Shown piece after piece: positions 1,471 to 55,046 of a stretch of DNA of 64,000 nucleotides. The first letter of the stretch is position 1. Every line of letters begins with the position of its first letter. The position numbers and the translations under genes were made by a program. The notes beneath the pieces are model-generated. The model made no database searches, was not told where the DNA came from, and worked only from the letters and a program-made list of their open reading frames with translations. The stretch is from positions 62,001-126,000 of the forward strand of contig NW_025940676.1 of NCBI RefSeq assembly GCF_000764305.2. The letters are read 5' to 3'. Source of the stretch: Hyalella azteca (lineage: Eukaryota > Arthropoda > Malacostraca > Amphipoda > Hyalellidae).

Positions 1471-2060
1471 TCGATTCATGTCTTCTTTGCCTGGTCTTGC
1501 AAACTTGAGAAACTTTCACTATATTAAGACTGGCAAGACTTGCTTTAACATGTCATTTGCCTAGTCCTGCAGACATGAGAAACTTCCACTATATGAAGAC
1601 TGACAAGACTTGCTTTAACATGTTCTTTGCCTATAATCTTGCAGACTCGCGAAACTTCCACTATATAAAGACTGGCAAGACTGGCTTTAACATGTTATTT
1701 GCCTGGTGTTGCAGACTTGGGAAACTTCCACTATATAAAGACTGACAAGACTGGCTTTAACATGTTATTTGCCTGGTCTTGCAGACTTGGGAAACTTCCA
1801 CTATATAAAGACTGACAAGACTTGCTTTAACCTGCTCTTTCTCTGGTCTTGCAAACTTCCAGTACATAAAGACTGGCAAGACTTGCTTTAACACGTCATT
1901 TGCCTGGTCTTACAGACTTGAGAGACTACAGCGCTAGCGTTACTCAGAGTTCGCCCTGGTTGTCGGTGACGTTGTAGGCGACCTACATAAAGACCGGCAA
2001 GACTTGCTTTAACATGTTCTTCGCCTAGTCTTACAGACGTGAGAGACTACAACCCTAACG
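1470..2060. repeat. About 80-bp tandem repeat 3' of ACOX
   Basis: Roughly seven units each contain GCCTGGTCTTGCAGACTTG and ACTATATAAAGACTG. Two right-hand units incorporate the terminal codons and stop of the ACOX gene, so the array has captured exon sequence. Confidence 0.85.
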
Positions 2061-2065
2061 TTTGC

Positions 2066-2218
2066 TCAGAGTTCGCCCTGGTTGTCGGTGACGTTGTAGG
2101 CGACCCAGTCGCGCGCGATGGGGGCGCTCAGCATAGAGTCCGGGATGGCGAAGGCCTCGGTGAGCGGCAGCGCTTGAGCTGACAGCTCGGCGCACAGAGA
2201 CCGAGACCCCTCCACCAA
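2066..2218 (-). CDS. ACOX: ACOX coding exon 13 (residues 583-632) and stop
   Basis: Encodes [20 protein letters not shown] then [14 protein letters not shown] and TGA. The last 40 or so coding bases with the stop codon are repeated downstream at about 1946-1983, inside the tandem array that occupies the 3' flank. No typical peroxisomal tripeptide ends the protein. Confidence 0.92.
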   Translation of the reverse strand: MVEGSRSLCAELSAQALPLTEAFAIPDSMLSAPIARDWVAYNVTDNQGEL

Positions 2219-5200
2219 CTGCAGCAATAATACCAATAAAGTTAATCATAAATTGTAGTACTTTTACAAATAAATGATTTTTAATACTTTTATTTATAGT
2301 CAAAATTGTGATAATTTGTAATACCAAAATTTAAATATTATGTCAAAATTGTAATACCAATATAGTCAAAATTGTCGTACCAATATAGTAAAAATTGTAA
2401 TACTTTTAAATTTAAATGACAAGTTAATGTCTAATAAAGTTCGCGAGAAAGTATTCATTTATTGGACAATCGGCTGCTGATAGGGCCACCATGAAATGGC
2501 CCATACAATATTAGTTCTTGTTGCCGCAGATAATTTCGGTGAGAGCGCAGGTATGAGGCACGAATTTAACAATAACAAGCCAGCCATGAAATTATAATGT
2601 TAACTACAATCCAGACCAAAGAGCTGTCACACTGACCTGCTGGTACTGCTCTGCACTGAGCAGTCCGCTGCAGAGGAAGAAGGCAGGGTCCTGCTCGAGG
2701 AAGTTGATGGCGTAGAGGCGGTAGAGCTGAGGCAGTACCGCCGCTAGAGACGGTTCACTTTTCTGCGTCACTGAGAAGAACTGCGAGACGCAATGAACTT
2801 CTTACTATTGGGTTAAATATTTTTTATTTCTTGTCTCTTTAGGAAACTCAAATATCGGTTTTATTTGTTGTCTCTTTAGGAAACTCAAATATCGGTTAGG
2901 TTCGCGAGGGTTCACTTTTCTGCGTCACTGAGAAGAACTGCGAGACGCAATGAGCTTCTTACTATTGGGTTAAATATTTTTTTATTTGTTCTCTCTTTGG
3001 GAAACTCAAACTAAGGTTAGGTTCAAAAGTCTGGTATGTGGCCAGAGAAATAATTTCTCCGACAGATGTTAATCGAATTTTTTCCCGCAAATAGATACAA
3101 CAGTCCAACTCATATAGACCCAAAACATAACCACGAGCTCGTTCCCTACTCAGTTACTGGATATGTTAACGTATTTATACAGTAGCCTGCAGAGCTGACC
3201 TGCTCAGCGACGGTTACCTACTCAGTTACTGGATAAGTTAACGTATTTATACAGTAGCCTGCAGAGCTGACCTGCTCAGCGACGGTTACCAACTCAGTTA
3301 CTGGATATGTTAACGTATTTATACAGTAGCCTGCAGGGCTGACCTGCTCAGCGACGGTTACCTACTCAGTTACTGGATAAGTTAACGTATTTATACAGTA
3401 GCCTGCAGAGCTGACCTGCTCAGCGACGGTTACCAACTCAGTTACTGGATATGTTAACGTATTTATACAGTAGCCTGCAGGGCTGACCTGCTCAGCGACG
3501 GTTACCAACTCAGTTACTGGATAAGTTAGCGTATTTATACATTAGCCTGCAGGCTGACCTGCTCAGCGACGGTTACCAACTCAGTTACTGGATAAGTTAG
3601 CGTATTTATACATTAGCCTGCAGGGCTGACCTGCTCAGCGACGAGGCGCTCAGCGTAGGCCCTGGCAGCGGCCTGCACGAGGTCGCTCTCCCGCAGCATC
3701 CACGTCTCGAAGACGCCGCTCTTGCCCGCTGCTGCCATCTTCTTGCCAAGCTCCTGATGGAGGGATATTTTTATAATTTTAGATACTTTATTTTATTTTA
3801 ATATTTTAAAACTTCTTGCCAAGCTCATGATGGGGCGGGATATTTTTATAATTTTTAATATTTTATATAATTTTTTATTTTATTTTAATATTTTAAAACT
3901 TCTTGCCAAGCTGCCAAGCTCCTGGCGGCATGGCGGGGCAAACGAACGTTAAAGCTCTATAGAGACAAGCGTGCTTATAAGCCATCAATGGTCGACAGAA
4001 GTATTTCAAAGTCAAGCAAGGAATTATAAAATATACTATTAATATATTTATTATTATCATAGTATACTATTATGGGAATTATTATAAGCCATCAATGGTC
4101 GACAGAAGTATTTCAAAGTCAAGCAAGCAATTATATAATATAACATTAATATATTTATTGTCATCGTACTATACTATTATAGTTATTATTATATACTATT
4201 TCAGTTAATTGATGGTAATCAAGGGATAAAGGATGAGGCTTATCCAAAAATAATGTATCTAGGAAAGAACAATTGTTCATCGGGTTAACGAAGTCATGCG
4301 ATCAGCTGAGATCTTCAATATCAGAGGCTCTCACTGGTAAAGTCAGTAAGTGGAGTAAACCAATAATATTAGGTAGACTTCAGTAAATCCGAAACGCCAT
4401 CAGGTGGCACGTAGACACTTCAACTTTTTTCAGCAAAAATTGACACAATTATTTATTAATGAAGATTTTCAGCTGAGTAGAGATCTATTTTAAAGACTAA
4501 AAAGTTGTGAATTTATAGTAAATATAGTTGCGCTTAAGTTTTTATTGCGCAAGACTAAAAATTTGCGCTTTTATAGTAACTATAGTTGTACGTAAGTTTA
4601 TACGGCGTCTCAGGAAGAGCTAGGTTACCATAATCATGATAATATCCATGATGATATCCTAATCCATAATAATCACGCCGCTCTACAGACTATTGGTACA
4701 ACTGCCTCATGATTAAAGTTGTGCGTTTACGGTACGTAAATATACCAGTTGTACGTAAGTTGATATCGCATCTCAGGGCAGACCATGGGCTAATCCATAA
4801 TAATCATGCCGCTCTACAGGCATGATAATTCCATTATCCGTTGGCACAATTGCCTAGGAAGGTCGTACCGTGAAGAGTTTGTTTAACGCTCTACAGACAG
4901 ACATGAACGCTCTACAGACAGACATGAACGCTCTACAGACTGAATACTGAACGCTCTACAGACATGAACGCTCTACAGACATGATTATTCCATTATCCAT
5001 TGGCACAATTGCCTAGGAAGACCGTACCGTGAAGAGTTTGTTTAACGCTCTACAGACAGACATGAAGGCTCTATAGACTGAATACTGAACGCTCTACAGA
5101 CATGATAATTCCATTATCCATTGGCACAATTGCCTAGGAAGACCGTACCGTGAAGAGTTTGTTCTCGCGCTGTGCGAGGAGGTCCAACAGACCGCATCCC

Positions 5201-8200
5201 GTGTCCGTGGCCGCCGGTCTGAACGCGGCCAGTCGCTCCTTGGCCACCTTCTGCATGAGGACCGAGCTGTCGCCCTCAGCGGTCACGCCCGCGTGGGCCA
5301 GCCCGATGAACGTGCCAAATCTGAGGGGAGATCAAGATAAGATAATGAGAATAATATGTTTGCATTATAATATATATTATACAGCGAATTATGCAAGTAT
5401 ATGTATTATACATATAGATATGTGTAATACATATATGTATATGTATTATACATATGATATGAATATGTATTATACATATACATATTATATAATATGTATA
5501 TGTGATATATCATATATAATATACATTTATTCTAAAAATATATTATAATAAATTATAAGATGCTATAATAAGAACTTTGCAAGCAAAACGCCCGCCTTAA
5601 TTCGCCAAGACTGATTTGCATATTATTGTGGTTCACGATCAAGAATTAAAATGGGAGGAGAAGCGAGAATGTCGCAGTGCGTATTAATTAAGTGAGGCGC
5701 AGAATGCTCATTCAAATTCAATCTCTTCAGATCGGAAATAAGATTTTGCAATACAATATTGAAATTAGAAGCAACAAATGATTAAAAGCCAGTCGCCAAG
5801 AATGATTGCTTAGTGAGATATGACACTTGATCCATTTATTTATAGAATGTAGGCATACAAAAACTTGCCTATATGGAGATACTCGAGGTCACGCAGAAGT
5901 TCGTCTTTCCTTCAATTTTATCATGAAAATTTTAAATGGAAATTAATTAATTAGCAACAAAGAGCGGACACGTATTAGACATCGGATGCATTGCAGCATG
6001 TAAAAAAGTCTGGTGGAATTTAATTCAATTAGTTTATTTTTCATTAATTTTTAATATTCTCCCCTTCTGGCCGGTCTCAAGTCAAACCTAAAGAAGAATA
6101 ATTGATGAAAAATCTCCAGATTTTCCTCCACTATTCTTACCGCAGGAAGCTCTCACTCTCTGGAACTTACATTCTACTGGTCTACCGCCACAGCAGCTAA
6201 GTAGATCTGGCCGCAGCCATGTTCTCATCCGTACTGGTCTTCATGGTGGCTCGACGAGAGAATTTTTTACTTACCTGAAGCTTTGACGTACGTTCTTTCA
6301 TGGTTGAACTATATAAGGTTGAACAGTTCTCCCATGGTTGAACTATACAAGATTGACCCACGAGAAGTTCCGTCTTTCAGTTCAGCTCTCTTGTTACGTC
6401 ACTGAGATCGAGAAACGTAAACAATCCCGTCATTCCCATGACGGATTGGTTGACTGGTTTGATCGCATTTCGGTGATTGGTTAATGCCCATGACGTCACT
6501 GAGATTGGTGACGTCGTCACAGGCGAACAACAAACTACATCCGCAAAAATTAGCTTCTCATGGGTCAACCGGTCAACCTTATTCTAGTTCAACCATGGGT
6601 TATCCTGCGCCACAGCTGCGGCATGAGGTTGTGATCCCCCGCACCAAGTCCGGGAGACGTCAGATGTATGGCTTGTTTCTGGCCAGAGATTTGCTAGCCT
6701 CGTTCCCAGCCAAATTTTTAATCTGGAACATCCTTCAGGACTGAACCGTTTATTATTCTTGAATTCCACCGATTTTTTCCTTTTACTGTTGTTTACTTGA
6801 TATCATTATTCTAAGATTTCTATGATAATTGATATTGCATTTTAAGTTTGGTTTGCCTGCAGGTTGGATGTTTGAGATGCCATGGATGAGCGAGCCAGCC
6901 ATGATATTCTCCTTACATTGATCCCATGCCCCTAAGGGGATCAGGCGAGTCCCTTCTTATAACGCTCCTCCTCAAATGAAGCAGAGGGAGGAGGGATTCT
7001 CCTTGGAGCTTGAAATAAAGTATGTTCAGGTTTTTCGTAGTTAATCCTTTCGTATTTTCCTCGAACGTTGATTTAGTATGGGAATTTACTATAGGCGGAG
7101 ATTCGCAGTGTCATCTTCATTATGAATTCAATTCAGCTTTTTCTAAACAGCACGACCAATTTTGGATGCTGCATTGGTACAGAAATATTTACTGAAAGTA
7201 GTTCACATTGATGAGAGGCCGTCACCTCAGAAGGGCAAACTGGCCACCACGCACCTGTTGCAGGAGAGGAAGCCCTGGCCACCACGCACCTGTTGCAGGA
7301 GAGGAAGCCCTGGCCGCCGCTGCGTTCCCTGCAGACGGTGGCAGTGCGCTCGAGGTGCCACGCCGCCAGAGGTTTGATGGCACAGCACTTCGTGACCACA
7401 GACGCGTGCTCGCTGCCGTCGCTAGGCTGCTCCGCCCAACACCGCTGACCGGCAGGGGTGGTAATGGTGGTTAATAGATTTAATGGTGGGTAATACATTT
7501 ATGGTCTGATCCTCAACAACTGATGTTGGGAAATTAATGGCATTGTTCTGAACTTTTTTGTTGAATATTCGATGTATCAACTCTATAATTAAAAGTTGTT
7601 GAGAAAAATTCGGCACGGGCAACATAATATGAAGCTGCAATACCAAGAAGCGGGACCTCATATTAGACCTCAGTCTATTCTATTATAGAATACTTTCAAT
7701 GAATTATATTTCTCTTTGCCGTCTTGATTCTTATACTCGAACTGAGCTCCTAACAAGTTCCCTTTACGCTGCCAATATCAATTTATACACATACGTACTG
7801 TATCATAATGGCGCTGAGATAAACTTGTTATTCAAACCCTATAAATCACTTTCTCTCTCTCTCTAATCAGCAAATGATATTCGTGTTGCTAAGTATTCGA
7901 GAACGAGTGATGACTTGCCCCATACTAGACCATCACTTGCCCCCACACATCACCTTATGACCTTATGATGAGTTCGGGACTTCCTTGTCCCCGGTCTAGC
8001 TGATGCTCCGCCTCCGTCTCCGAGACGTCGCTAGGCAGGTCACCCCGCCCTCGGGTCCCGGATGTAACGTTGGACGTGTTCCGTCTATTTGCCCTCCTTT
8101 GGGCCAGCTGATGCAAGATGCTGTTGCTTGTTACTTGCTGAGGGTAGTTTCCCATTACTGGACAGTCTGGGATCTTTCTCAACCACTTGTCCAGTTGTCT

Positions 8201-50200: not shown

Positions 50201-53200
50201 TACTTACGGAAGTCTTTCACGTCTAAGTTTCATATGCATTGCATTTTTTAATAAAATCTACAGAAGGAAGTGGAGCCACGAATCAATTGGACTAGTGTGT
50301 ATAACTAGGGATAAAATTGCACAGGAGTGTGGGAATAGTCAACTCACCATCAGCTTTCAAAACCACCAAACAGAAACGCAGGAGCTTGCGTCGTTCGACA
50401 ACCTTAATCGTCAAAAGCCATATACTGTAATCCCTTATCAGTGAGCAATCATGAACCATTACATTACTTGCTGCACTAAGCACTTTCGTTAAGTGTTAAC
50501 ATTTAGATTGGAGTTATTTCATCAAGCGGCAGTCGCGCGTTTTCAATATGGCGGGAGAGCTCTAGTCACGCTGTTCGACAAGTAATCTATATAATCCACG
50601 CTCACGCTGGGGTGAGTTCAAACATTAGAGGTGGAAATGAATGCAGCTAATTTGCAATAAGTCAGAAATATACCAGATTAAGGCAATAATACCAGATCAA
50701 AAATATCAATACCAGACACCGTCTCAAAATACCAAATTTGTGAAATCTGGTAAGAAATAATACCAGTTGTCAACGCTGGTCTTATGTTGGACAGGTGCAC
50801 AGCTCACTGCCGCCGCGCGGAGCAGCTCACTCGGTTGTTAAAGTTTATACGTAGTTAGCTAAATGAACTACCTAGATATTATAGAGCAAAATAGCTAAAT
50901 TATTATTGATCCAACACTAAGAATGAATCTCAGGTTTAAGAGTATCTCGACAGACAAGGCTGTGAGATTTGTGGTTATTTTTTTTCCCGGAAGTTATTAG
51001 AAATCAAGGGCGTTTTCCTGCAAACCCAGCACGATTAGGATTAAGCTAGGGGCCTCCCCTGTGCTTATCCGTACCTTGACGATGTAATGACTATTGATAG
51101 GCAGTTTCAACATTCAAACTCAATATTAACACCTTGAAGCCATTTTGAACGATTCGAATAATTCAACACTTCCAACGGCCTGTCCAACACCGTTATTTGA
51201 AGTCATGAGTCATGACTGAAAGGGCCATGCAGTAAGACCCACAAACGAGAGAGCGAGTAAAAAAGTACATCGCTAATTGGACAAGCGCTTTACTCATCTA
51301 AGTGGGTAATACAGACCTGCTCGTTCGTCTCAGTGCAGCGTAATTTAGCGAACTGTCGCGCTAAAAAAAATGGACACTTCGTCGATATTACGGTGATGAT
51401 ACGCGGGCGCCCGTTCCAATCATCTGGAGATTGATCTATTTCAATGCGCCGGCAGTACGTCTTGGATTTTTGACTACAGGGTAGGTGAAGTACATGCTGA
51501 GTTGCGTGCGGCCGGAGTAGGTTAGGACCGTTAGGTACAGGTTAAAATGCGCTCGACAATGGTAGGTTAGATACAAGACAAACTGCAAGCTTCCAAGCAG
51601 GAAGCTAGGCTCAATTTGAAATGCGTACGTGGCATTTTCAGTAAAACATGACAGGCTCGAGCTGCTACAAGACAGTGAGATAGGTTAGTGATGTTCATTC
51701 TTCACCTTAAGCGCCCCCATACACTAACGCATCTGGCTCGCAAGTCCGGCTAGCTAATTCTGACTAGCGAATCTGATTCGGTGATATTCCACCACACACC
51801 TATATACTCTTTTGCTCGCAACGCTCAGTGGTGAAGATTAGTCCGGCGAGGCAAGTTGCAGCTGCTGCCATCGTGGCCATACCGTCTTGTTGAATGAGCT
51901 CCGGACAGTGAAAAAGCCACAGAGGAAAAAATCTATGTGACCTATGGCTAGTCAATGGACGAAGATGCAGTCAATATGAATTTGCTAATTCATATTGCAT
52001 AGATGCAGTCAATATGAATTTGCTAATTTGATAGTCATTTTGCAACGATAAGCAAAATGACTATCAAAATTATTCAAGGATTATTTATTTTCTTAACAAA
52101 GTAACGGTCTGCATTGGGAACTTTTTCTCGCGTAATTCGAAAGAGATATTCCCTTGCTTTATCGCTTTGTAATTTATTCGAATATTCTGCGCGACGGACC
52201 TTCCACAAGCACGGCTAATTGCGGTACTCTTCAATAAACTTGCTTCGAAAGTCGGCTCGTGAATAGCTTGGAGTCCGCCATGACTGCACACGCCCTACTA
52301 GCTTGGCGTCTGCATAGCAACTGAACTCGAGCCGTCACCCCGCCAGCCGAGCCACACAGCAAGCAGAGGGAGCCGTGGCTCAGCTGGGTCGCCAGCCGGA
52401 GACCACCACTGCCCAGGATGTAATGGACTATCATAATTCCTGTCCTCCGGAACGTAGCCTTCAACACTTCAAGCCGTCCGTATCTAAGCCGTGGGTCAAA
52501 CCAGCCCTCGGTCGAACGGCCACTCGTCGAAGGACGATAAATTTTGGAACAGAACTTTGCTATCTGAAACCTAACCTTAGATACGGTGAACGTAAAAGTA
52601 CGTAATTTAACGATGCCCGGAAGTCATATTCGATCCGCGGCCTGGTGGTGCACGGCAGGTTTTATGCCAGGCCGGAGGTGGACAAAACCTAGTGGTTCAC
52701 GGCTGATTGGTGGATGTCCGGAGAGATCCAAGGCGTTCGATTCAGGGCTCGTTGGTGCACAAAATCGGTGGTGCACGGCTGCGCTCCCGCTCAGCTCGCC
52801 TTTAGTTTGTCCATCTCGGTTCGTTCGGCGCCATACTTGGGGGGTTTTGAGGTTAGCCGAGTTAGACTCGCGAGTCGAACTCCATGGTGTAAGGGGCCCT
52901 TTAACGTCAGGGGTGATTCACTAACGTAAAATCGGCAGGCGTCGGGTATCAACAGTAAAATGCGCATAGGTGGTCATACGTTTTAAACATTGGCTAATAA
53001 AAATGCTACCCAGCGGGAACTAGTCTGTAGGACTTTTAAACATGCCAACGTCACCTAGACGTTAATTTTAATAGTTGAATTGGATGTCCAGTAAAACCAC
53101 GAAGGGGCTATATAAAAGTAAGTGGCCCACCTGCACTGTCATTTTTGTAGTCATGGCTGGGTCGATGATGGCGGCAAGCTCGTGGGCGGCGAAGATCCTA

Positions 53201-55046
53201 AGCGGATTGTTCCTGAAGTCGAGCACTGAGATGAAGCCCGCGTCGCAGATGAGCTTGAGCCTCTTCAGCGCCACCTCGCGCTCCTCCGCCAGCGGGATGT
53301 TGTAGCGCGGCTTCATCACCTCATCGCTCATGAAGCTCCTGCAGCGCAAGCCAATGTTTCCTCATCATTACTAATGTTATAAAATGATGAAAATCAATTC
53401 ACGTTGAAGGTTATGTGACGTCAAATGATATTTTGAGTTCTCATCTTACCTACAGGTTAGAATACAAGCTTGAAGGAATCAAAAGTTGGAAAGTATTCCA
53501 GTGCAACGAAATCTCGATAAACGCCGACACAGCATATCAGGATACACTTTAACCATGAAATTATGGAATTGACAGAGTAACAGCAAACGCAGCGTTATGA
53601 GTGCGCATCTTCCATTATAAAGAAAATAAAAGATTCACGGATCTTCTCTCTAGTTGAATTTAAATCAACAAGAATCCACAAGGTTCAGGGGTTGTAAGCA
53701 TGTTACTCTGACACTAAACAACTAATACAAAAGTTTATTCTTGCGAAGCAACTAAATACTTTTGGGTCAAAAAATGTTTCTTTGAATTACAATTTTGTAA
53801 CAATGTACATATATTAAAACGTTGAATAATGTAATAATTATTCAATCCGAGTGATTTTATCAAGAAGCCATCAACTACACCCTAATTGACCTTTTTCATA
53901 ATTAATATCGGTAGGTTAGACTTCAAATGGAGCAAGGTGGGTTATTATACGACTTGCTTGTAATATAACACGGGCTAGGAACAGAAGCTGAAAATTGGTC
54001 ACGACAGTCAAGGAGCGAGTGAGAGATGCGGTTTGTGACGACAGCGTCATGAAGGAAGTGAGAAGTTGCATTTGGTGAGGATCATTCACACTGAATATCG
54101 TGAAGATGATTTCAGCTCGTAAGGCACCCGCCGTGCGGCCAAATTGAGCGTACCAAGCACGTAACCGTTGAAGTCACTGGTCGTGCGATCGATGAGCTTG
54201 AATTCCATCATGCAAGTGGAGTCATCTGGCTGCTGGCAGAGACGCACCTGAATTTGTTCCTCATGTCGTGGTTGTCGTGGTCCAGCAGCCGCGTCATGGC
54301 CGCGACGTCGAACACGGCCGGCGGTAGCGCGGCTCTGATGGCGCATGGGTCCTGCTGCGCCGCAGGGACGGCACTTGAATTGTGTCGCGCGCTGTCAAGA
54401 GACACAAAAGACATGGTCAGCTGAGACACAAGAGACATGGTCAGCTAAGGCACAAGAGACATGGTCAAGACACAAGAGACATGGTCAAGACACAAGAGAC
54501 ATGGTCAAGACACGAGAGACATGGTCGTACGATTAAAGAATTGAAGTGTTCTGTACTCCGACTATCGGCATGAACACTAAGAATTCCGATATACAGACAT
54601 TATTTACAGTGAAATGTTAAATTTACTTACTGCCGTCAGGAATAGTTGCGCACTTTATTTTAGTTAATTAACTCGCAAACTTCAACATTAGTTAGAGTTT
54701 GCGAATAAATAACTGAAAGACTGTCTATATTATTTCAACACAATTAACAACCTAAAGTCTAGCAGAAAATACCAGTCACAACCAGTCATATGACCAGCTC
54801 CTCCCCAACGAGGTGCTGCAGAAGGCCTTACCTGAGGGCGACGCCCCGCACGGCTCGGGCCAGCAGNTCTATATTATTTCAACACAGTTGACAACCTAGA
54901 GTCTGGCAGAAAATACCAGTCACAACCAGTCATATGACCAGCTCCTCCCCAACGAGGTGCTGCATAGGACCTTACCTGAGGGCGGCGCCCCGCACGGCTC
55001 GGGCCAGCAGCGCCGCCGATGAGCAGCTCAGCCGTGTGCACTGCAT
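2066..55046 (-). CDS. ACOX: Acyl-CoA oxidase, 13 coding exons, complete
   Basis: Flavoenzyme expected to oxidise acyl-CoA to trans-2-enoyl-CoA with O2 as acceptor, giving H2O2, the first step of peroxisomal beta-oxidation. Exons in reading order: 55046-54976, 54391-54248, 53338-53131, 13632-13461, 13126-12963, 12609-12446, 10976-10843, 9656-9544, 7444-7290, 5320-5149, 3753-3631, 2762-2637, 2218-2066. All junctions are GT-AG, phases agree, and the total is 1899 nt (632 aa plus TGA). The FAD/substrate signature [13 protein letters not shown] is at residues 172-184. [10 protein letters not shown] (428-437) precedes [10 protein letters not shown], whose Glu457 aligns with the catalytic base of ACOX enzymes. 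The start ATG has an in-frame TGA three codons upstream. The C-terminus ends GEL, so there is no SKL-type PTS1. The Arg-rich, acid-free N-terminus looks more like a mitochondrial presequence than PTS2. Intron 3 is about 39.5 kb. Substrate chain length cannot be read from the sequence. Confidence 0.93.
2637..2762 (-). CDS. ACOX: ACOX coding exon 12 (residues 541-582)
   Basis: Forty-two codons including [20 protein letters not shown], a C-terminal helix of the family. The acceptor is GTGACGCAG and the donor GTCAGT. The acceptor with the exon head is repeated upstream at about 2909-2940. Confidence 0.9.
2750..3017. repeat. Duplicated 3' splice site and exon head of ACOX exon 12
   Basis: The segment GGTTCACTTTTCTGCGTCAC with its intron flank (about 108 bp) occurs at 2752-2860 and again at 2909-3017. 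A partial copy of the intron flank lies between them. On the minus strand each copy supplies a GACGCAG acceptor and the same first codons. Confidence 0.85.
3150..3640. repeat. 78-bp tandem array carrying ACOX exon 11 donor
   Basis: About six units contain GTTACTGGATAAGTTAACG and CTGACCTGCTCAGCGACG. The latter is the reverse complement of the exon 11 tail plus GTCAG donor. Confidence 0.9.
3631..3753 (-). CDS. ACOX: ACOX coding exon 11 (residues 500-540)
   Basis: Forty-one codons in phase 0 at both ends, including [20 protein letters not shown]. Both edges are copied. The donor side (GCTGAGCAG/GTCAGC) recurs in about six 78-bp units at 3150-3640, and the acceptor side with the first exon codons recurs in the intron at about 3811 and 3897. 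Confidence 0.9.
3741..3935. repeat. Triplicated acceptor and head of ACOX exon 11
   Basis: Three copies of CTTCTTGCCAAGCTC are followed by AT-rich spacers ending in TATTTTAAAA. The first is the real exon head and the other two lie in the intron. Confidence 0.85.
3970..4195. repeat. Two-copy intron repeat of about 115 bp
   Basis: TTATAAGCCATCAATGGTCG and the following AT-rich stretch occur twice in tandem. No exon sequence is included. Confidence 0.8.
4640..5165. repeat. Tandem repeats carrying ACOX exon 10 donor
   Basis: GGCACAATTGCCTAGGAAG followed by CCGTACCGTGAAGAGTTTG occurs three times (from about 4844, 4999 and 5121). Between them lie short runs of AACGCTCTACAGACATG. Each copy contains the exon 10 tail plus its 5' splice site. 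Confidence 0.88.
5149..5320 (-). CDS. ACOX: ACOX coding exon 10 (residues 442-499), catalytic Glu
   Basis: Encodes [20 protein letters not shown] then [14 protein letters not shown]. Glu457 in AEGD aligns with the catalytic general base in the FEGEN motif of rat ACOX1. The donor GTACGG follows TTCACG in phase 0. The exon tail plus donor recurs twice in the intron, near 5027 and 4870. Confidence 0.92.
5370..5530. repeat. TATA/CATA-rich low-complexity stretch
   Basis: Alternating ATTATACATATA and ATGTATAT motifs form many short self-complementary stretches. It lies in the intron just upstream of ACOX exon 10. Confidence 0.7.
5540..6280. other. Intron sequence without recognised feature
   Basis: AT-rich intron 9 sequence of ACOX in which I see no repeat, exon or transposon protein. 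Confidence 0.4.
6331..6599. mobile_element. Foldback/MITE-like inverted repeat
   Basis: CCCATGGTTGAACTATACAA near 6331 is mirrored by CTAGTTCAACCATGGG near 6584. The arms extend over about 38 and 47 bp through the GGGTCAA and CTTCTC blocks, with mismatches. No protein is encoded. Confidence 0.5.
7255..7324. repeat. 35-bp duplication of ACOX exon 9 tail plus donor
   Basis: Two adjacent units contain CACGCACCTGTTGCAGGAGA and GGAAGCCCTGG. Each gives the same CAACAG/GTGCGT junction on the minus strand. Confidence 0.92.
7290..7444 (-). CDS. ACOX: ACOX coding exon 9 (residues 391-441)
   Basis: Encodes [20 protein letters not shown] and [16 protein letters not shown], the Gly-rich segment close to the flavin. 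The donor at 7289 (GTGCGT) is duplicated 35 bp further in, at 7254, together with the exon tail. Using the distal donor instead would add 35 nt and shift the frame. Confidence 0.92.
7445..7954. other. Intron sequence between ACOX exons 8 and 9, left part
   Basis: AT-rich, with a short CT run near 7850-7864. No gene is recognised. Confidence 0.4.
7955..8995 (-). pseudogene. 5'-truncated non-LTR retrotransposon (LINE), RT C-terminal part
   Basis: The minus-strand reading frame includes [41 protein letters not shown] and [12 protein letters not shown]. These match the segment downstream of the polymerase core in Jockey/CR1-like LINE ORF2 proteins. A frame change near 8478 separates this from the extreme C-terminus ([32 protein letters not shown]). 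The YADD region and endonuclease are absent, so the copy is 5'-truncated and dead. It ends at 7920-7955 with TAAGGTCATAAGGTGATG on the minus strand, like a short repeated LINE tail. It lies in ACOX intron 8, in the same orientation as the gene. Confidence 0.8.
8990..9290. repeat. 24-bp tandem repeat with terminal palindrome
   Basis: About eleven units of GACCCCCTGACTTGTCCC(G/A)CA. The array runs directly into the truncated 5' end of the LINE fragment, and at its right end the unit reverses orientation. Confidence 0.92.
9381..9582. repeat. Triplicated ACOX exon 8 tail plus donor (67-bp units)
   Basis: Three units contain GGCAAGACTGCGCACTC and CTACCTTGACGTAGTCCA. Each carries about 44 bp of exon 8 and about 23 bp of intron with an identical minus-strand AAG/GTAGGG or AAG/GTAAGG junction. 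Confidence 0.93.
9544..9656 (-). CDS. ACOX: ACOX coding exon 8 (residues 353-390)
   Basis: Encodes [20 protein letters not shown] and [15 protein letters not shown] in phase 0 at donor GTAGGG. Two more copies of the last 40 or so exon bases plus this donor follow in the intron in 67-bp units (9381-9582), so three equivalent 5' splice sites exist. Confidence 0.93.
9677..9780. repeat. 20-bp tandem repeat at ACOX exon 8 acceptor side
   Basis: Five units of GAGACCGTCCCGTCCACAC with point differences. The array begins about 20 bp upstream of the exon 8 acceptor and contains no exon sequence. Confidence 0.88.
9800..10670. other. Intron sequence between ACOX exons 7 and 8
   Basis: A short repeat of TACACGTTTA occurs around 10030-10110. 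Otherwise no exon, transposon or RNA gene is recognised. Confidence 0.4.
10680..10835. repeat. Degenerate repeat of about 30 bp at ACOX exon 7 donor side
   Basis: Units of AGAAAGTAATGGCTCAGGA, then two of AGTAATAGTGTGCAGAAAGG. They adjoin the donor but do not include coding bases. Confidence 0.8.
10843..10976 (-). CDS. ACOX: ACOX coding exon 7 (residues 308-352)
   Basis: Encodes [20 protein letters not shown] and [13 protein letters not shown], the start of the C-terminal alpha-helical domain. The acceptor is TTATCACAG and the donor GTACGT. A degenerate repeat of about 30 bp (10680-10835) begins directly at the donor side. Confidence 0.93.
11000..11766. other. Intron sequence between ACOX exons 6 and 7
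   Basis: Unique-looking AT-rich sequence. No feature is recognised. Confidence 0.4.
11767..12126 (-). pseudogene. MADF-domain fragment
   Basis: The reading frame begins [20 protein letters not shown] and continues [20 protein letters not shown] then [14 protein letters not shown]. The [12 protein letters not shown]...AYxxLV pattern is the MADF (Myb/SANT-like DNA-binding) domain, common in arthropod transcription regulators and in transposon accessory proteins. Only about the first half of the domain aligns; after VVAKK the sequence diverges. It lies inside ACOX intron 6 on the gene's strand, with a GGAC/AGAC microsatellite beside it, and is most simply a captured or transposon-derived fragment. 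It could also be a separate small exon. Confidence 0.5.
12233..12276. repeat. (GGAC/AGAC)n microsatellite
   Basis: A run of GGACGGACGGACAGACGG, next to the MADF fragment. The flanks GCGCATTTTCTCG and AATGAGAAAATGCAC form a loose inverted repeat around it, suggesting a small non-autonomous element. Confidence 0.7.
12446..12609 (-). CDS. ACOX: ACOX coding exon 6 (residues 254-307)
   Basis: Encodes [20 protein letters not shown] and [19 protein letters not shown], a highly conserved family segment that closes the middle domain. The acceptor is TACGCAG and the donor GTCAGC. An 18-bp repeat (12620-12705) lies just upstream on the acceptor side but does not include exon sequence. Confidence 0.95.
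12620..12705. repeat. 18-bp tandem repeat at ACOX exon 6 acceptor
   Basis: About five units of AGACATTCTCATGTCAGC, starting 11 bp upstream of the exon 6 acceptor on the minus strand. The reverse complement contributes several CTGACATG motifs. Confidence 0.88.
12963..13126 (-). CDS. ACOX: ACOX coding exon 5 (residues 199-253)
   Basis: Encodes the beta-barrel middle domain: [20 protein letters not shown], then [20 protein letters not shown]. The acceptor is TTGCCGCCAG and the donor GTACGTGAG. This is one of the few exons here without an obvious copied edge. Confidence 0.93.
13262..13480. repeat. About 36-bp array of ACOX exon 4 tail plus donor
   Basis: At least six units of GTCGTACACGGCCGTGGTAC and CCACCTGTAGACGG. 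On the minus strand each encodes [13 protein letters not shown] residues ending at an ACAG/GTGGGT junction. One copy has GGGGGA in place of the GT. Confidence 0.92.
13461..13632 (-). CDS. ACOX: ACOX coding exon 4 (residues 142-198), FAD-binding signature
   Basis: Encodes [17 protein letters not shown] and the oxidase signature [20 protein letters not shown]. The chosen donor (GTCCGT) joins in phase to exon 5 and gives [13 protein letters not shown], as expected for the family. At least five further copies of the exon tail plus a donor lie just inside the intron (13262-13460), and copies of the acceptor lie upstream, so the splice boundary is ambiguous by design of the sequence. Confidence 0.9.
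13621..13860. repeat. Array of ACOX exon 4 acceptor plus exon head
   Basis: About five units of ACAGGTTGAACTGCGCCGCAG with GGTTGGTTAGGT. Each supplies a minus-strand GCGCAG/TTCAACCTG-like junction. A diverged set of the same motif appears far away at 51490-51600, next to the other end of the same intron. Confidence 0.85.
13865..15140. other. Left end of giant ACOX intron 3, no gene recognised
   Basis: AT-rich sequence. A 17-bp self-complementary stretch lies at about 14880-14912 (TTGATTATCTGAATATTTCAGATAATCAA). Otherwise nothing is recognised up to the CACTA-like fragment. Confidence 0.4.
15591..16013. mobile_element. 423-bp MITE with TA target duplication
   Basis: The element begins CCCAGTTAAAATTTAG and ends AAATTCTAACTGGG, imperfect terminal inverted repeats of about 14 bp. 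TA flanks both ends (15589-15590, 16014-16015), as for Tc1/mariner-type insertions. Removing the element and one TA joins HNSY to ADSERV, which aligns with [10 protein letters not shown] in the CACTA-like copy at 47.95 kb. This shows the insertion landed in a then-continuous transposase frame. No transposase of its own is encoded. Confidence 0.85.
16666..16697. repeat. (ATA)n microsatellite
   Basis: Uninterrupted ATA triplets within the decayed CACTA-like fragment. Confidence 0.9.
17110..18690. other. Intronic sequence between transposon remnants
   Basis: AT-rich. A direct repeat of CCAGTCCCCATCCACCC occurs twice near 18390-18440. No coding exon is recognised. It may belong to the same CACTA-like element as its neighbours. 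Confidence 0.35.
18690..18886 (+). pseudogene. Exon of a transposon-companion protein
   Basis: A plus-strand frame reads [20 protein letters not shown] then [16 protein letters not shown] and [15 protein letters not shown], ending at a GTAAGT donor (18880-18885). The pattern VPSxWL...WPP...W..FPVxxxxT matches the N-terminal domain of a large arthropod and cnidarian protein family that often carries DUF4806 at its C-terminus and travels with transposons. No matching downstream exon was found here, so it is listed as a remnant. It is probably part of the CACTA-like element to its left. Confidence 0.45.
19290..19870 (+). pseudogene. Penelope-like reverse transcriptase fragment
   Basis: Plus-strand pieces read [20 protein letters not shown], then a frame change, [24 protein letters not shown] residues, [20 protein letters not shown] and [16 protein letters not shown]. 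The SLFTNIP, IDGxxMGxPLGPTLANIFM, YRRYVDD and QHxxIKFTxE blocks are diagnostic of Penelope-like RTs. The catalytic YVDD reads YVYD, so an active-site aspartate is lost. Frame changes also separate the blocks. No GIY-YIG endonuclease domain is seen downstream, where a Helitron-like remnant begins. Confidence 0.78.
20105..23340 (+). pseudogene. Decayed Helitron/Helentron-like Rep protein
   Basis: From an ATG at 20105 ([20 protein letters not shown], internal TAG near 20234) the plus strand has long but broken frames. Near 22690-22750 it reads [20 protein letters not shown], matching the EFQxRGxPHxHxL block. HVH at 22727-22735 is the HUH metal-binding motif of rolling-circle Rep. [14 protein letters not shown] follows, then [20 protein letters not shown] near 23260-23320, which resembles the Rep tyrosine region. 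A Cys pair ([17 protein letters not shown]) lies near 20570. No helicase domain is seen, so only the Rep half survives. The link between the 5' frames and the Rep block is inferred from strand, spacing and continuous decay. Confidence 0.55.
23340..24370. other. Probable remainder of Helitron-like remnant
   Basis: Short plus-strand frames with many stops continue for some 600 bp after the last recognisable Rep block, followed by AT-rich sequence. No helicase motif is visible. Confidence 0.35.
24421..25290. repeat. Dispersed pair of about 125-bp repeats with ACAGGT motifs
   Basis: The block containing GACAGGTCCC, CCACAAAATC and ATCAGCAAAG occurs at 24421-24545 and again at 25158-25290. Both lie in the 5' flank of the recombinase element. 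Confidence 0.8.
24568..26001. repeat. Three copies of a 170-bp repeat
   Basis: Copies at 24568-24740, 24743-24915 and 25825-26001 share CAATCATTTGGGCCAATAG, GAGTTAGGAAGTTCTA and GCCATAGGAAAGGAGTTATG. The first two are in direct tandem. About 50 bp of flank after copies 2 and 3 also match. Confidence 0.92.
25030..25155. repeat. Cluster of GTACTAA/TTAGTAC motifs
   Basis: About ten copies of TTAGTAC or its reverse complement GTACTAA occur in both orientations, giving palindromic blocks such as TTAGTACTAA. It lies in the 5' flank of the recombinase element. A further copy is near 25295. Confidence 0.8.
25769..26705. repeat. About 165-bp direct repeats upstream of recombinase gene
   Basis: Units beginning TGTTAGACGACAGCGTGGA and containing AGGTAGGAGGAAATTTAAT and AATAGTATACAAATAGGAC start at 26290, 26466 and 26633 (the last partial). 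A fragment occurs at 25769. Each unit includes an AG/GTAGG junction, so they may be repeated splice-donor modules. Confidence 0.85.
26208..26847. repeat. 42-bp inverted repeat flanking the 165-bp units
   Basis: 26208-26249 (CCATCAGGTACCATAGTAG to TTGTGGTAAC) is the near-perfect reverse complement of 26806-26847 (GTTACCACAAGGATC to GGTACCTGATGG). A direct copy of TATCTAATTGTGTTTTGCAG follows each arm (26258, 26869), the second being the acceptor before the coding start. Confidence 0.85.
26731..26761. repeat. Palindrome ACCTGGT-TAA-ACCAGGT
   Basis: Arms ACCTGGT (26740-26746) and ACCAGGT (26750-26756) are enclosed by CCGGT and ACCGG. It lies 190 bp upstream of the recombinase start and resembles the ACCTGT/ACAGGT palindromes. 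Confidence 0.8.
26946..30883 (+). CDS. Zinc-finger tyrosine recombinase, five exons, ends at an in-frame stop
   Basis: Exons 26946-27579, 27694-27828, 28062-28196, 28379-29036 and 29167-30883 join by GT-AG in phase to 1092 codons. Residues 1-130 are basic and low complexity. Exons 2 and 3 are 45-codon duplicates. Residues about 300-400 are acidic, then Arg-rich. Exon 5 has a C2H2-like finger (CLIPSC...HYESAH) and a second CPRCHKPF...H finger, then the helical core. At the C-terminal end [14 protein letters not shown] supplies the first catalytic Arg (R1083/R1084). TAA then stops the frame, although the same frame continues with [15 protein letters not shown], which carries the beta-hairpin Lys expected next. 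Either the stop is a lesion or an unseen splice bypasses it. Expected function is DNA strand exchange for its own element. Confidence 0.65.
27527..28196 (+). repeat. Tandem duplication of an exon with its intron
   Basis: The 3' end of exon 1, exon 2 (135 bp) and exon 3 (135 bp) are homologous, sharing THVEEAEE and [14 protein letters not shown] residues. The introns after each begin with AATTATCTATGTCAATGATG. The unit is symmetrical in phase (1-1), so added copies keep the frame. All three donor sites are intact, the first as A/GTGAAT. Confidence 0.9.
27882..28000. mobile_element. 119-bp insertion carrying a palindrome pair
   Basis: Introns 1 and 2 of the recombinase gene are duplicates. Intron 1 reads TCTAAAATGGCTTTCGATGC. 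Intron 2 has TCTAAAATG, then about 119 extra bases, then CTTTCGATGC. The extra sequence holds ACCTGT-CTTG-ACAGCT (27896) and ACCTGT-CTTT-ACAGGT (27917) and the block GGGGTACCGAGAAGGGAAC. Related modules occur at 34138, 35732 and more distantly at 33634 and 46101. No clear target duplication is visible. Confidence 0.75.
30884..31153 (+). pseudogene. Recombinase catalytic segment after the stop
   Basis: The frame of exon 5 remains open for 90 codons after the TAA at 30881-30883. It reads [20 protein letters not shown] then [21 protein letters not shown] with the upstream basic residues fits the hairpin Lys region of tyrosine recombinases, and the following helix fits the segment before HxxR. 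A second stop at 31151-31153 and a change of frame separate this from the final recombinase motifs. Confidence 0.6.
31137..32639 (+). CDS. Recombinase C-terminal motifs, acidic region, repeat tail and end domain
   Basis: Open from 31137 (first ATG 31158). It begins with [13 protein letters not shown] and [16 protein letters not shown], fitting the second Arg and the H...T...Y nucleophile block of tyrosine recombinases (Tyr near 31317), so it belongs to the preceding frames. An acidic stretch follows ([13 protein letters not shown]), then a Lys-rich patch, then about nine repeats of [14 protein letters not shown] (31860-32325). The final 85 residues ([20 protein letters not shown], then [20 protein letters not shown]) are conserved in the second copy at 44.76 kb. 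That end domain resembles DUF4806 in outline (coiled helix, then FP...E...L...L), a weak call. The antisense open frame across the repeats is a by-product of their 42-bp period. Confidence 0.6.
   Translation, partial: SPFTNKVMVNYAEVTDQPRFTLRKNRKLVVSVTKDMPDQSPVLNSEMALVMGHTYDTQNTFYTVGTMDGRIDRVTSHIWQKVYSRESYRTPFERSHIVGANLVPGANIPAHDDTDVIIMKDIEAARAARRAKLALARKGRSRPSDALSEEDESEEEDEEDEPDAAAQAAQSELDLPIDLPTDEEEEDPDDPNASSNCSLLAPPPATVGKGKSGGKHKTKKSMKKKTAPTGTSTDPARTSEPSPVVAPATPSVAPATPSVKGSHLRKWLLTFPSVKGSNISVAPATPSVEGSNISVAPATPSVEGSNISVAPATPSVEGSNNISVAPATPSVEGSNISVAPATPSVEGSNISLAPATPSVDGSGSNISLAPATPSVEGSIISLAPATPSVDGSGSMMSVDSASPSDHGRDGNESVLEPVSTPASKEATQKELHVAKKLCNTNSRILSRLMKTHKEIFMKEVFNATTVPLIFPFLMAPFNSEVEFIVVLVKALQDSGAIRVK
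32925..33130. repeat. TTCATTCATTC-rich tandem repeat
   Basis: About ten units of ATGTTCATTCATTCTTGATTC directly follow the recombinase gene. The same array is present at 45290-45430 in the second copy. Confidence 0.9.
33400..36040. repeat. Long direct repeats of the 3' flank
   Basis: Blocks starting at TGAATAACTAAGTCA, containing AAGCATGAACTTGGTCTCG, TTGGCAACGG(A/G)ATTTGG and CACCAAAATTCTACCAACATG, occur from about 33425, 33745 and 35335. The segment following the 34138 palindrome pair (to about 34530) recurs after the 35732 pair (to about 36110). The copy at 33425 lacks about 190 bp present in the matching copy at 45.7 kb. Confidence 0.88.
36040..36395. repeat. About 120-bp tandem repeat
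   Basis: Three units share ATCAAAATGCTTCAA, CCCATTTCAAGGGGATTC and TATTTTTGCTCAATATCAA. A related single unit lies near 34450-34560. Confidence 0.88.
37010..42290. other. Intron 3 sequence without recognised gene
   Basis: AT-rich throughout. Short open frames near 39690 and 41750 consist of trinucleotide-biased GCGACGGCAGC-type sequence and show no protein family. A large-scale search was not possible. Confidence 0.35.
42310..42490. repeat. 55-bp tandem repeat
   Basis: Three near-identical units of CGCCACACCACCAGGACCTG and CATTGTCGGTGCGTAC with a diverged unit at the left end. Confidence 0.9.
42500..43400. other. Intron 3 sequence, nothing recognised
   Basis: AT-rich and without visible repeats or transposon proteins. 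Confidence 0.35.
43412..43708 (+). CDS. Possible terminal coding exon of unknown gene
   Basis: A 98-codon frame preceded by TTTTCTGTAG (a plausible acceptor ending at 43412) has higher GC and more coding-like codon use than its AT-rich surroundings. It reads [53 protein letters not shown] and ends [13 protein letters not shown] do not recognise the family; the end looks like a short hydrophobic, Cys-containing tail. No partner exon was found on the plus strand nearby, so it may be a retained gene fragment in the ACOX intron or a chance frame. Confidence 0.35.
   Translation: MRGPGNLCKRKRRYLEIQRALPTEEKFTGDVELSGSMMDSSRPDEKIADKSSRGFLTFWKASTSTFVLTSNVTSFVRIGRFIQIFIGLGCRATLCIHN
43710..44720. other. 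Intron 3 sequence left of second recombinase-element copy
   Basis: AT-rich up to about 44460. A short Lys/Glu-rich plus-strand stretch (44579-44720) then runs into the copy. It has no counterpart in the full element, so it is probably flank or unrelated insertion. Confidence 0.35.
44764..45012 (+). pseudogene. Conserved end domain of the recombinase-element protein
   Basis: Eighty-two codons beginning [20 protein letters not shown], then [20 protein letters not shown], are near-identical to the C-terminal 85 residues of the full copy, with a two-codon deletion (EV) and a few replacements. The reading frame is intact to the same stop. Upstream sequence is unrelated, so expression is uncertain. 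Confidence 0.65.
45653..46620. repeat. Palindromes in the second element copy
   Basis: ACCTGT-N4-ACAGGT occurs at 45653 (CATT), 46101 (AATT), 46122 (CATG) and 46605 (CTTG). The 46101/46122 pair has two perfect members. The partner of 46605 is degraded, and the homology to the full copy ends there. Confidence 0.88.
46640..47330. other. Sequence between two transposon fragments
   Basis: A plus-strand frame at 46745-47050 shows no recognised family. The rest is AT-rich, with an A-run near 47308. Confidence 0.35.
47337..48079 (+). pseudogene. Second CACTA/EnSpm-like transposase fragment
   Basis: Plus-strand frames read [38 protein letters not shown] and [18 protein letters not shown]. After a frame change near 47890 they continue [20 protein letters not shown] and [20 protein letters not shown]. 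These align block by block with the copy at 15.2-16.0 kb and with the family pattern GLPLF...FxxDAPAR...GYxxCxRC. It stops at a TAG near 48079. An upstream frame (47337-47555) may be the N-terminal part. Confidence 0.6.
48080..51470. other. Intron 3 sequence without recognised gene
   Basis: Minus-strand frames at 48227-48496 and 48687-48890 may be pieces of a transposon protein, but I recognise no family. The rest is AT-rich unique-looking sequence. Confidence 0.35.
51480..51610. repeat. Diverged copy of the ACOX exon 4 acceptor repeat
   Basis: AGGTTAGGACCGTTAGGTAC with TTGCGTGCGGCCGGAG and AATGCGCTCGAC resemble the GGTTGAACTGCG/GGTTAGGTACAG units at 13.6-13.85 kb, which lie at the opposite end of the same 39.5-kb intron. 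Confidence 0.5.
52028..52067. repeat. Perfect 16-bp hairpin
   Basis: TTGATAGTCATTTTGC, an 8-bp loop, then GCAAAATGACTATCAA. Just upstream a 40-bp unit with ATGCAGTCAATATGAATTTG is duplicated (51964, 52002). Confidence 0.9.
52080..53060. other. GC-richer intron 3 sequence near ACOX exon 3
   Basis: Several overlapping short frames on both strands are open because of base composition. None shows a recognisable family or good splice context. Confidence 0.35.
53131..53338 (-). CDS. ACOX: ACOX coding exon 3 (residues 72-141)
   Basis: Encodes the N-terminal helical domain, including [20 protein letters not shown] and [20 protein letters not shown]. It ends in phase 0 at donor GTGGGC. The next coding exon is about 39.5 kb away, across the transposon-filled intron. 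Confidence 0.9.
53345..54240. other. ACOX intron 2
   Basis: AT-rich, no repeat or exon recognised. Open frames near 54100-54240 are shadow extensions of exon 2. Confidence 0.5.
54248..54391 (-). CDS. ACOX: ACOX coding exon 2 (residues 24-71)
   Basis: Encodes the start of the mature enzyme, including [21 protein letters not shown]. The acceptor is TTGACAG and the donor GTGCGT. The upstream intron side is a tandem array of a 19-20 bp unit (54397-54525). Confidence 0.85.
54397..54525. repeat. 19-20 bp tandem repeat at ACOX exon 2 acceptor side
   Basis: About seven units of AGACACAAGAGACATGGTC. The first unit overlaps the acceptor region (TTGACAG on the minus strand), and GTC-AAGACAC junctions repeat the CTTGAC motif. 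Confidence 0.9.
54725..55009. repeat. 142-bp duplication with ACOX exon 1 tail, split by an unresolved base
   Basis: 54725-54866 and 54868-55009 are near-identical (TCTATATTATTTCAACACA to GGCTCGGGCCAGCAG). Both carry the exon 1 donor and about 34 bp of coding sequence. A single n at 54867 marks the junction, so the duplication could be real or a misassembled gap closure between two overlapping contig ends. Confidence 0.88.
54976..55046 (-). CDS. ACOX: ACOX coding exon 1 (residues 1-23)
   Basis: The exon begins [20 protein letters not shown], rich in Arg, Ser and Ala and without acidic residues, then ends two bases into a codon before the donor GTAAGG. An in-frame TGA lies at 55058-55056, so translation cannot start further upstream in this exon. 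The exon tail and donor are present a second time at about 54833-54866, immediately before the unresolved base. Confidence 0.75.

What the first reader, a model, noticed from the sequence alone, without database searches (positions are those of the whole stretch)
2066..55046. Exon edges of one gene repeatedly copied in tandem into adjacent introns
In the ACOX gene the donor side of exons 1, 4, 8, 9, 10 and 11, the acceptor side of exons 4, 11 and 12, and the stop-codon end of exon 13 each recur next to themselves in 2-7 copies. Each copy contains 8-45 coding bases, the splice junction and intron flank. The repeat units are unrelated between exons, so this is not one transposon but a recurrent process that starts at exon boundaries. 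The gene therefore presents arrays of equivalent 5' or 3' splice sites. Possible causes are slippage at paused R-loops, repair of splice-site-proximal breaks, or selection for redundant splice sites. It could also be an early stage of intron expansion.
Basis: seen in the sequence. Interest (0 to 1): 0.88.

Follow-up and report, generated by a model that had tools for sequence, protein, structure and literature searches.

The report
Tandem repeats crossing an amphipod gene's exon edges
One gene of a small crustacean carries extra tandem copies of many of its exon ends inside the neighbouring introns, but the same kind of duplication litters this genome, and in the other genes sampled it hits exon ends about as often as ordinary intron sequence.

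Summary
The window holds a complete 13-exon acyl-CoA oxidase gene, minus strand, of the amphipod Hyalella azteca. Nine of 24 splice edges (donors 1, 4, 8, 9, 10, 11; acceptors 4, 11, 12) have tandem copies on the intron side; so does the stop-codon end.

That the process starts at exon boundaries is not supported. Tandem-pair footprints cover 13.3% of the window and 14.1% of 13 blind stretches of this genome. In 13 other genes 8 of 110 solved splice edges are duplicated, against 7.4 expected from their own introns; a stricter test gives 6 of 110 against 8.3. Exon interiors are depleted, 1.8% against 9.1% in introns.

Best reading: a general small-tandem-duplication process, tolerated at exon edges because one intact exon and junction survive. 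This gene has clearly more duplicated edges than the others (P 0.0001), but it was picked for them, and the excess over its own short introns is not significant (P 0.066). Boundary duplications are known in human and potato genes. The gene is a good natural test of splice-site choice.

The parts
54976..55046 (-). exon 1 of the acyl-CoA oxidase gene (from ATG)
54723..55010 (-). tandem duplication (144-base period, 2 copies) spanning exon 1 donor; single N at the junction (54867)
54248..54391 (-). exon 2; no edge duplicated (a 20-base array, 54400-54526, ends within 10 bases of its acceptor)
53131..53338 (-). exon 3; no edge duplicated
13461..13632 (-). exon 4
13623..13706 (-). 34-base array (2.5 copies) spanning exon 4 acceptor
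13297..13458 (-). 34-base array (4.8 copies) of exon 4 donor in intron 4; diverged, 4 of 5 examined copies keep GT
12963..13126 (-). exon 5
12446..12609 (-). exon 6
10843..10976 (-). exon 7
9544..9656 (-). exon 8
9380..9586 (-). 68-base array (3 copies) spanning exon 8 donor, 43 coding bases in the unit
7290..7444 (-). exon 9
7240..7315 (-). 35-base duplication (100% matches) spanning exon 9 donor
5149..5320 (-). exon 10
4809..5163 (-). three copies of exon 10 donor (offsets 0, +121, +280)
3631..3753 (-). exon 11
3141..3643 (-). 72-base array (7 copies) of exon 11 donor; the six intronic copies all keep GT
3739..3882 (-). about 73-base duplication of exon 11 acceptor; the intronic copy has lost AG
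2637..2780 (-). exon 12 (acceptor corrected by alignment)
2751..2982 (-). 157-base-spaced duplication of exon 12 acceptor, 29 coding bases
2066..2218 (-). exon 13 (to the stop codon)
1902..2095 (-). duplication of the stop-codon end (period 122, 90% over 73 bases)

Best explanation
This amphipod genome keeps producing small tandem duplications (tens to a few hundred bases) anywhere, and some grow into arrays. Duplications inside exons are mostly removed by selection (inferred from their depletion). Those that cross an exon edge survive about as well as those in introns, because the exon up to its edge and one complete junction stay intact and the extra copy lands in the intron. The splicing machinery then has several near-identical sites; the exon-proximal one is probably used (inferred). 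The acyl-CoA oxidase gene shows so many because its short introns lie in a patch rich in such arrays. The first duplication probably arises by repair of staggered breaks with fill-in and end joining; further copies come from slippage or unequal exchange (both inferred). Shown: the duplications, their spread in the genome sample, no edge enrichment in the other genes sampled, exon depletion. Suggested: short shared sequence at breakpoints. Inferred: repair pathway, splice choice, neutrality.
For: Tandem-pair footprints cover 13.3% of the window and 14.1% of 114,560 non-N bases in 13 blind stretches; 10.5% of the 307,546 non-N bases of window, stretches and gene regions. In 13 other genes 8 of 110 splice edges are duplicated against 7.4 expected from the same genes' noncoding sequence (4 of 70 chaperonin edges at background 5.2%; 4 of 40 others at 9.5%; P 0.47). 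Gapped word test 6 of 110 against 8.3. All exon-match ends of 14 genes 11 of 152 against 15.7. Exon interior 263 of 14,502 positions (1.8%) against introns 9,423 of 103,235 (9.1%) over this gene, 8 chaperonin and 5 exchanger genes. Three genes without arrays in their introns have none at edges (C1245, C3175, C2706); C310, C1428 and C572 have arrays in introns but none at solved edges. Breakpoints: of 82 two-copy-like duplications 24 share more than 6 bases (probably part-copy arrays); of the other 58, 20 share 0, 11 share 1 and 23 share 2-3; of 2,837 simulated ones 55% share 0 and 15% share 2-3. This would fit break fill-in with end joining (PMC8355091, abstract and introduction read).
Against: The gene itself has more duplicated edges than the sample (8 of 24 against 8 of 110, P 0.0017; 9 of 24 against 6 of 110, P 0.0001) and more than its own whole-gene intron rate (P 0.0046; P 0.0008); only the local comparisons are not significant (P 0.19; P 0.066). 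In it, intron positions 5-100 bases from donors are about 50% duplicated against 14% at 800-1500 bases; the chaperonin set hints the same way (about 0.11 at 15-100 against 0.03 at 200-400), the exchanger and molybdopterin set does not. The shared-base count is weak: real duplications were extended tolerating mismatches, simulated ones exactly, and neighbouring events of one array can count more than once. No RNA was available. Splice sites of the other genes were inferred with a matrix recalled from memory plus frame and homology spacing, and several junctions were left out.
Confidence: 0.75

Rival explanations
1. A process tied to exon ends, such as transcription pausing, R-loops or breaks near splice sites, seeds duplications at exon boundaries, at least in some genes.
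For: 9 of 24 edges in this gene against 6 of 110 elsewhere; donor-side gradient in this gene and weakly in the chaperonin genes.
Against: No excess at edges in 13 other genes or at exon-match ends in 14; no gradient in the exchanger set; no donor preference (10 donors of 16; 9 of 15, P 0.61); arrays equally common in blind stretches; the gene was chosen for the feature.
Confidence: 0.12
2. Selection favours redundant splice sites, keeping duplicated donors and acceptors.
For: 16 of 17 examined intronic donor copies keep GT; of 5 acceptor offsets examined 3 keep AG, and one of the two without it (-146 at exon 11) is not an aligned copy.
Against: Copies are similar, so retention is expected anyway; use of a donor copy would mostly shift the frame or meet a stop (only donor 4 at +57 and +159 leaves an open in-frame insertion); no excess of duplicated edges in the other genes.
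Confidence: 0.04
3. The repeats are assembly artefacts of a draft genome.
For: A single N sits exactly between the two copies at exon 1 and both flanks match across it; single Ns are frequent in this assembly (6 in the 9 stretches then held).
Against: Copies differ from each other: the edge arrays that Tandem Repeats Finder lists show 84-100% matches, and the copies at exon 11 are not all alike. Of 7 single Ns only the window's has both flanks repeated, one other has one flank repeated. The pattern recurs on other contigs.
Confidence: 0.06
4. Early intron expansion or intron gain: the arrays are the first stage of new introns or shifted junctions.
For: Known precedent: a duplication across an intron-exon boundary made a new intron in potato (PMC4974935, abstract and results read).
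Against: The spliced frame aligns with its relatives without an added exon piece, after the exon 12 correction; no transcript evidence.
Confidence: 0.03

Closest known systems
Internal tandem repeats at exon-intron boundaries of human segmental-duplication genes (PMC2812944; passages read)
   Same: Minisatellite-sized units located at exon-intron boundaries.
   Different: There the repeats vary between paralogues and have transcript evidence of altered splicing; here one gene has ten affected ends and no RNA was available.
Intron gain by tandem duplication across an intron-exon boundary in a potato RdRp gene (PMC4974935; abstract and results read)
   Same: A tandem duplication that carries intron flank, junction and part of the exon.
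   Different: There a new spliced intron resulted; here no new intron is shown and one edge has seven copies.
Small tandem duplications from fill-in at staggered breaks (PMC8355091; abstract and introduction read)
   Same: Short direct duplications.
   Different: Shown in cells at induced breaks; here only the sequence outcome is seen.
Tandem (GYRGYR/NAGNAG) splice sites and intron sliding in Drosophila (PMC2891723; abstract and one section read)
   Same: Neighbouring alternative sites of the same intron.
   Different: The intron pairs there lie less than 32 bases apart; here the copies lie 34 to 431 bases from the real edge in long duplicated units.

Membership tests
Minisatellite-type tandem repeat crossing exon-intron boundaries | Head-to-tail units of tens of bases, two or more copies | tested here: met
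Minisatellite-type tandem repeat crossing exon-intron boundaries | Unit includes the junction with coding bases | tested here: met
   10-43 coding bases per unit at 8 edges
Minisatellite-type tandem repeat crossing exon-intron boundaries | Copy number variable between alleles or paralogues | not tested
   one assembly only
Intron gain by tandem duplication | Duplication crosses an intron-exon boundary | tested here: met
Intron gain by tandem duplication | New intron spliced out of the mRNA | not testable with these tools
   no RNA held
Rogers-type AGGT exonic duplication (as described in PMC4974935) | Duplicated segment is exonic and supplies both new splice sites | tested here: not met
   the duplicated units span existing junctions and hold intron flank
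Break fill-in tandem duplication | Little shared sequence at breakpoints | tested here: inconclusive
   54 of 58 duplications with 0-6 shared bases have 0-3, but 24 of all 82 have more, and the measure tolerates mismatches
Break fill-in tandem duplication | Dependence on end joining and Pol alpha-primase | not testable with these tools
   needs genetics
   8 of 110 against 7.4 and 6 of 110 against 8.3 outside this gene; within this gene not significant locally (P 0.19; P 0.066)

The most novel reading that the evidence does not exclude
In some genes of this genome, transcription-linked breaks near splice junctions seed tandem duplications, so that genes such as this acyl-CoA oxidase accumulate arrays of near-identical donors and acceptors that the spliceosome must choose among, with exon 4 able to make in-frame insertions from stronger intronic donor copies. 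(Odds lowered from 0.08 while checking: a donor preference seen proved to be a fault of that script.)
Probability: 0.06. Interest if true: 0.75.

Novelty: new member of a known kind. Interest (0 to 1): 0.35.

Why it matters
As a claim about a process aimed at exon boundaries it does not hold up in the sample. It matters as a natural experiment: at exon 11 seven near-identical 5' splice sites follow each other at 71-72 bases, and other edges have two to six, so RNA reads could show directly how proximal and distal sites of similar strength are chosen. It also suggests that in a genome rich in tandem duplications splice edges tolerate them about as well as introns do, which bears on how intron sequence and new introns arise.

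Tried and rejected
Junctions of the chaperonin, exchanger and molybdopterin genes were solved by frame, homology spacing and a donor/acceptor matrix recalled from memory. [quoted passage not shown] one ambiguous junction (C3175) was kept. In the exchanger set gene B gave no junction, one junction of gene C had no solution, further pairs were gaps, and one junction of gene E was dropped. The test on all match ends needs no junctions and gave the same answer.

A first gapped word test (this gene 7 of 24, others 3 of 110 against 6.4, donors 9 of 10) was faulty: its best-match setting skipped inexact copies that lie upstream of the edge, so it missed acceptors. It was replaced (this gene 9 of 24, others 6 of 110 against 8.3, donors 9 of 15), and the donor preference went away. 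P values computed's counts are not used. Two other edge tests were weaker: 18-base junction words (99 of 600 random window positions positive) and a positional profile. Pfam scans of ten other open frames of the window gave no match at E 0.01. The Hyalella genome paper looked up is not held. No paper on tandem arrays at splice edges in amphipods was seen in the listings (a licence-limited library).

Full report
What the window is. The gene is a complete acyl-CoA oxidase: 13 exons on the minus strand from window 55046 to 2066, with an open spliced frame and Pfam acyl-CoA oxidase and dehydrogenase domains. Its closest listed protein is from the talitrid amphipod Trinorchestia longiramus, 78% identical. 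Alignment with six crustacean relatives gives one correction to my first model: exon 12 begins 18 bases further up, at 2780, giving 638 residues. The window lies in contig C2881 of a 519-Mb assembly of 4890 contigs. I identify it as Hyalella azteca: contig C100 is 617,110 bases long, the protein database gives that same length for the contig of two H. azteca exchanger proteins, P0130 and P0135, and P0135 maps to C100 in 11 matches, 9 of them 93-100% identical.

Check of the observation. Tandem Repeats Finder lists arrays at most of the places named, and reading the sequence shows the exon ends repeated. An ungapped tandem-pair scan finds 8 of 24 splice edges inside a duplicated unit: donors 1, 8, 9, 10, 11 and acceptors 4, 11, 12, with 10 to 43 coding bases per unit. 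A gapped word test finds the same eight and donor 4, 9 of 24. The stop-codon end recurs at +122 with 90% identity over 73 bases. Details that differ: the copy of acceptor 11 has no AG and one of five copies of donor 4 has no GT; the exon 1 duplication has the window's only N at its junction.

Is it more than chance? One block shuffle of the window gives no such pairs, the real window 225. The proper control is the genome's own background. In this gene 11.7% of intron positions, and 20.7% of those within 1.5 kb of an exon, pass the same test; 8 of 24 edges exceeds the circular-shift mean of 2.97 (P 0.02) but not local shifts (mean 5.86, P 0.19). With the gapped test 9 of 24 exceeds the gene's 11.3% (P 0.0008), and 8 of 19 edges of exons 4-13 against 24.2% gives P 0.066. 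Of 13 blind stretches of the genome, 14.1% of 114,560 bases lie in tandem-pair footprints, against 13.3% of the window: the window as a whole is ordinary for this genome, with a dense patch at its start (43% in the first 4 kb, which holds some of the edge arrays).

Other genes. Profile matches of the chaperonin family gave 61 exon matches; I fetched 8 gene regions holding 55 of them and used 35 solved junctions. 4 of 70 edges are duplicated, 3 donors and 1 acceptor; the noncoding background in the same regions is 5.2%. Four of five exchanger genes on contig C100 and one molybdopterin-enzyme gene gave 20 junctions; 4 of 40 edges are duplicated, 2 donors and 2 acceptors, background 9.5%. Together 8 of 110 against 7.4 expected (P 0.47). 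The gapped word test gives 6 of 110 against 8.3. A test on all exon-match ends, needing no solved junctions, gives 11 of 152 in 14 genes against 15.7. Exon interiors are depleted, 1.8% against 9.1% for introns. Edges therefore behave like introns, not like special targets.

Single cases elsewhere show that the pattern is not unique to this gene. By eye, an acyl-CoA ligase exon end (Pfam AMP-binding) with about 32 coding bases stands three times in a row, the exon end and two copies downstream, on blind contig C1; the end of an acyl-CoA oxidase paralogue, stop codon included, lies in a 50-base array on contig C3498. By test, a chaperonin donor on C684 has five further copies.

Results against my reading. 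This gene has more duplicated edges than the other genes together (8 of 24 against 8 of 110, P 0.0017; 9 of 24 against 6 of 110, P 0.0001). It was selected for that feature, so the P values are inflated, and its short introns are dense as well (9 of 18 edge zones against 6.0). Whether the remaining local excess (P 0.066, to 0.19) is real cannot be told from one gene. A donor-side gradient shows in this gene and weakly in the chaperonin genes but not in the exchanger set. A donor preference that I saw was a fault of that script; the repaired test has 9 donors and 6 acceptors (P 0.61).

Mechanism. A tandem duplication that starts in an exon and ends in the intron leaves the exon and its first junction intact and puts the copy in the intron; at an acceptor the last junction is the intact one. 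The copies found at splice edges lie on the intron side, as this predicts and as any surviving case would show. If an intronic donor copy were used, the frame would mostly shift or meet a stop; only copies +57 and +159 of donor 4 leave an open in-frame insertion, and the +57 copy scores higher than the real donor on a matrix recalled from memory (5.7 against 1.4). Breakpoints of two-copy duplications share 2-3 bases in 23 of 58 (82 in all, 24 with more than 6 shared bases set apart), against 15% of simulated ones. The real ones were extended with mismatches allowed and the simulated ones were not, so this is a hint. It would fit end joining after fill-in of a staggered break (PMC8355091; abstract and introduction read). 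The pathway is inferred.

Comparison with what is known. Minisatellites at exon-intron boundaries that change splicing are described for human genes (PMC2812944, passages read), and a tandem duplication across an intron-exon boundary made a new intron in potato (PMC4974935, abstract and results read). Novel intron positions by sliding and tandem duplication are known in Drosophila (PMC2891723, abstract and one section read). The Trinorchestia genome paper gives tandem repeats as the largest repeat portion, 6.18% (PMC7062882, passages read). So the kind is known; the number of affected ends in one gene is the unusual part. No paper on it was seen in the listings, which cover only a licence-limited library.

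Noticed in passing
P0001 (Trinorchestia longiramus protein), first 150 columns of alignment A1: The annotated 703-residue relative holds the sequence of exon 2 twice in tandem, so a duplicated exon or an assembly or annotation product is present in a related amphipod.
   Followed up: no
L027 (C310:26800-34700), about 727-1114 and again 2877 bases further: A chaperonin exon with flanks, 387 bases, is present twice 2.9 kb apart at 98.7% identity.
   Followed up: partly
L015 (C3498), 1368-1514: Stop-codon end of an acyl-CoA oxidase paralogue lies in a 50-base array (by eye).
   Followed up: partly
L001, 4929-5400: Acyl-CoA ligase exon end present three times in a row with a 128-base unit.
   Followed up: partly
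window 26859-32639 (+): A run of long open frames in intron 3, one with a 42-base coding repeat (31890-32305) and, by eye, a partial second copy near 44701-45012; no Pfam match for four of them.
   Followed up: partly
window 59736-61568 (-): A 610-residue glutamine-rich open frame that runs through a 21-base array (61212-61543); no Pfam match.
   Followed up: no
C2881 against P0001: The window's contig is 134,744 bases and the contig of the Trinorchestia protein is listed as 134,742 bases; with 78% protein identity I take it as a coincidence.
   Followed up: no
window 54867 and single Ns in L001, L004, L005, L006, L007: Single Ns are frequent in this assembly; only the one in the window has both flanks repeated across it, one other (L005) has one flank repeated.
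   Followed up: partly
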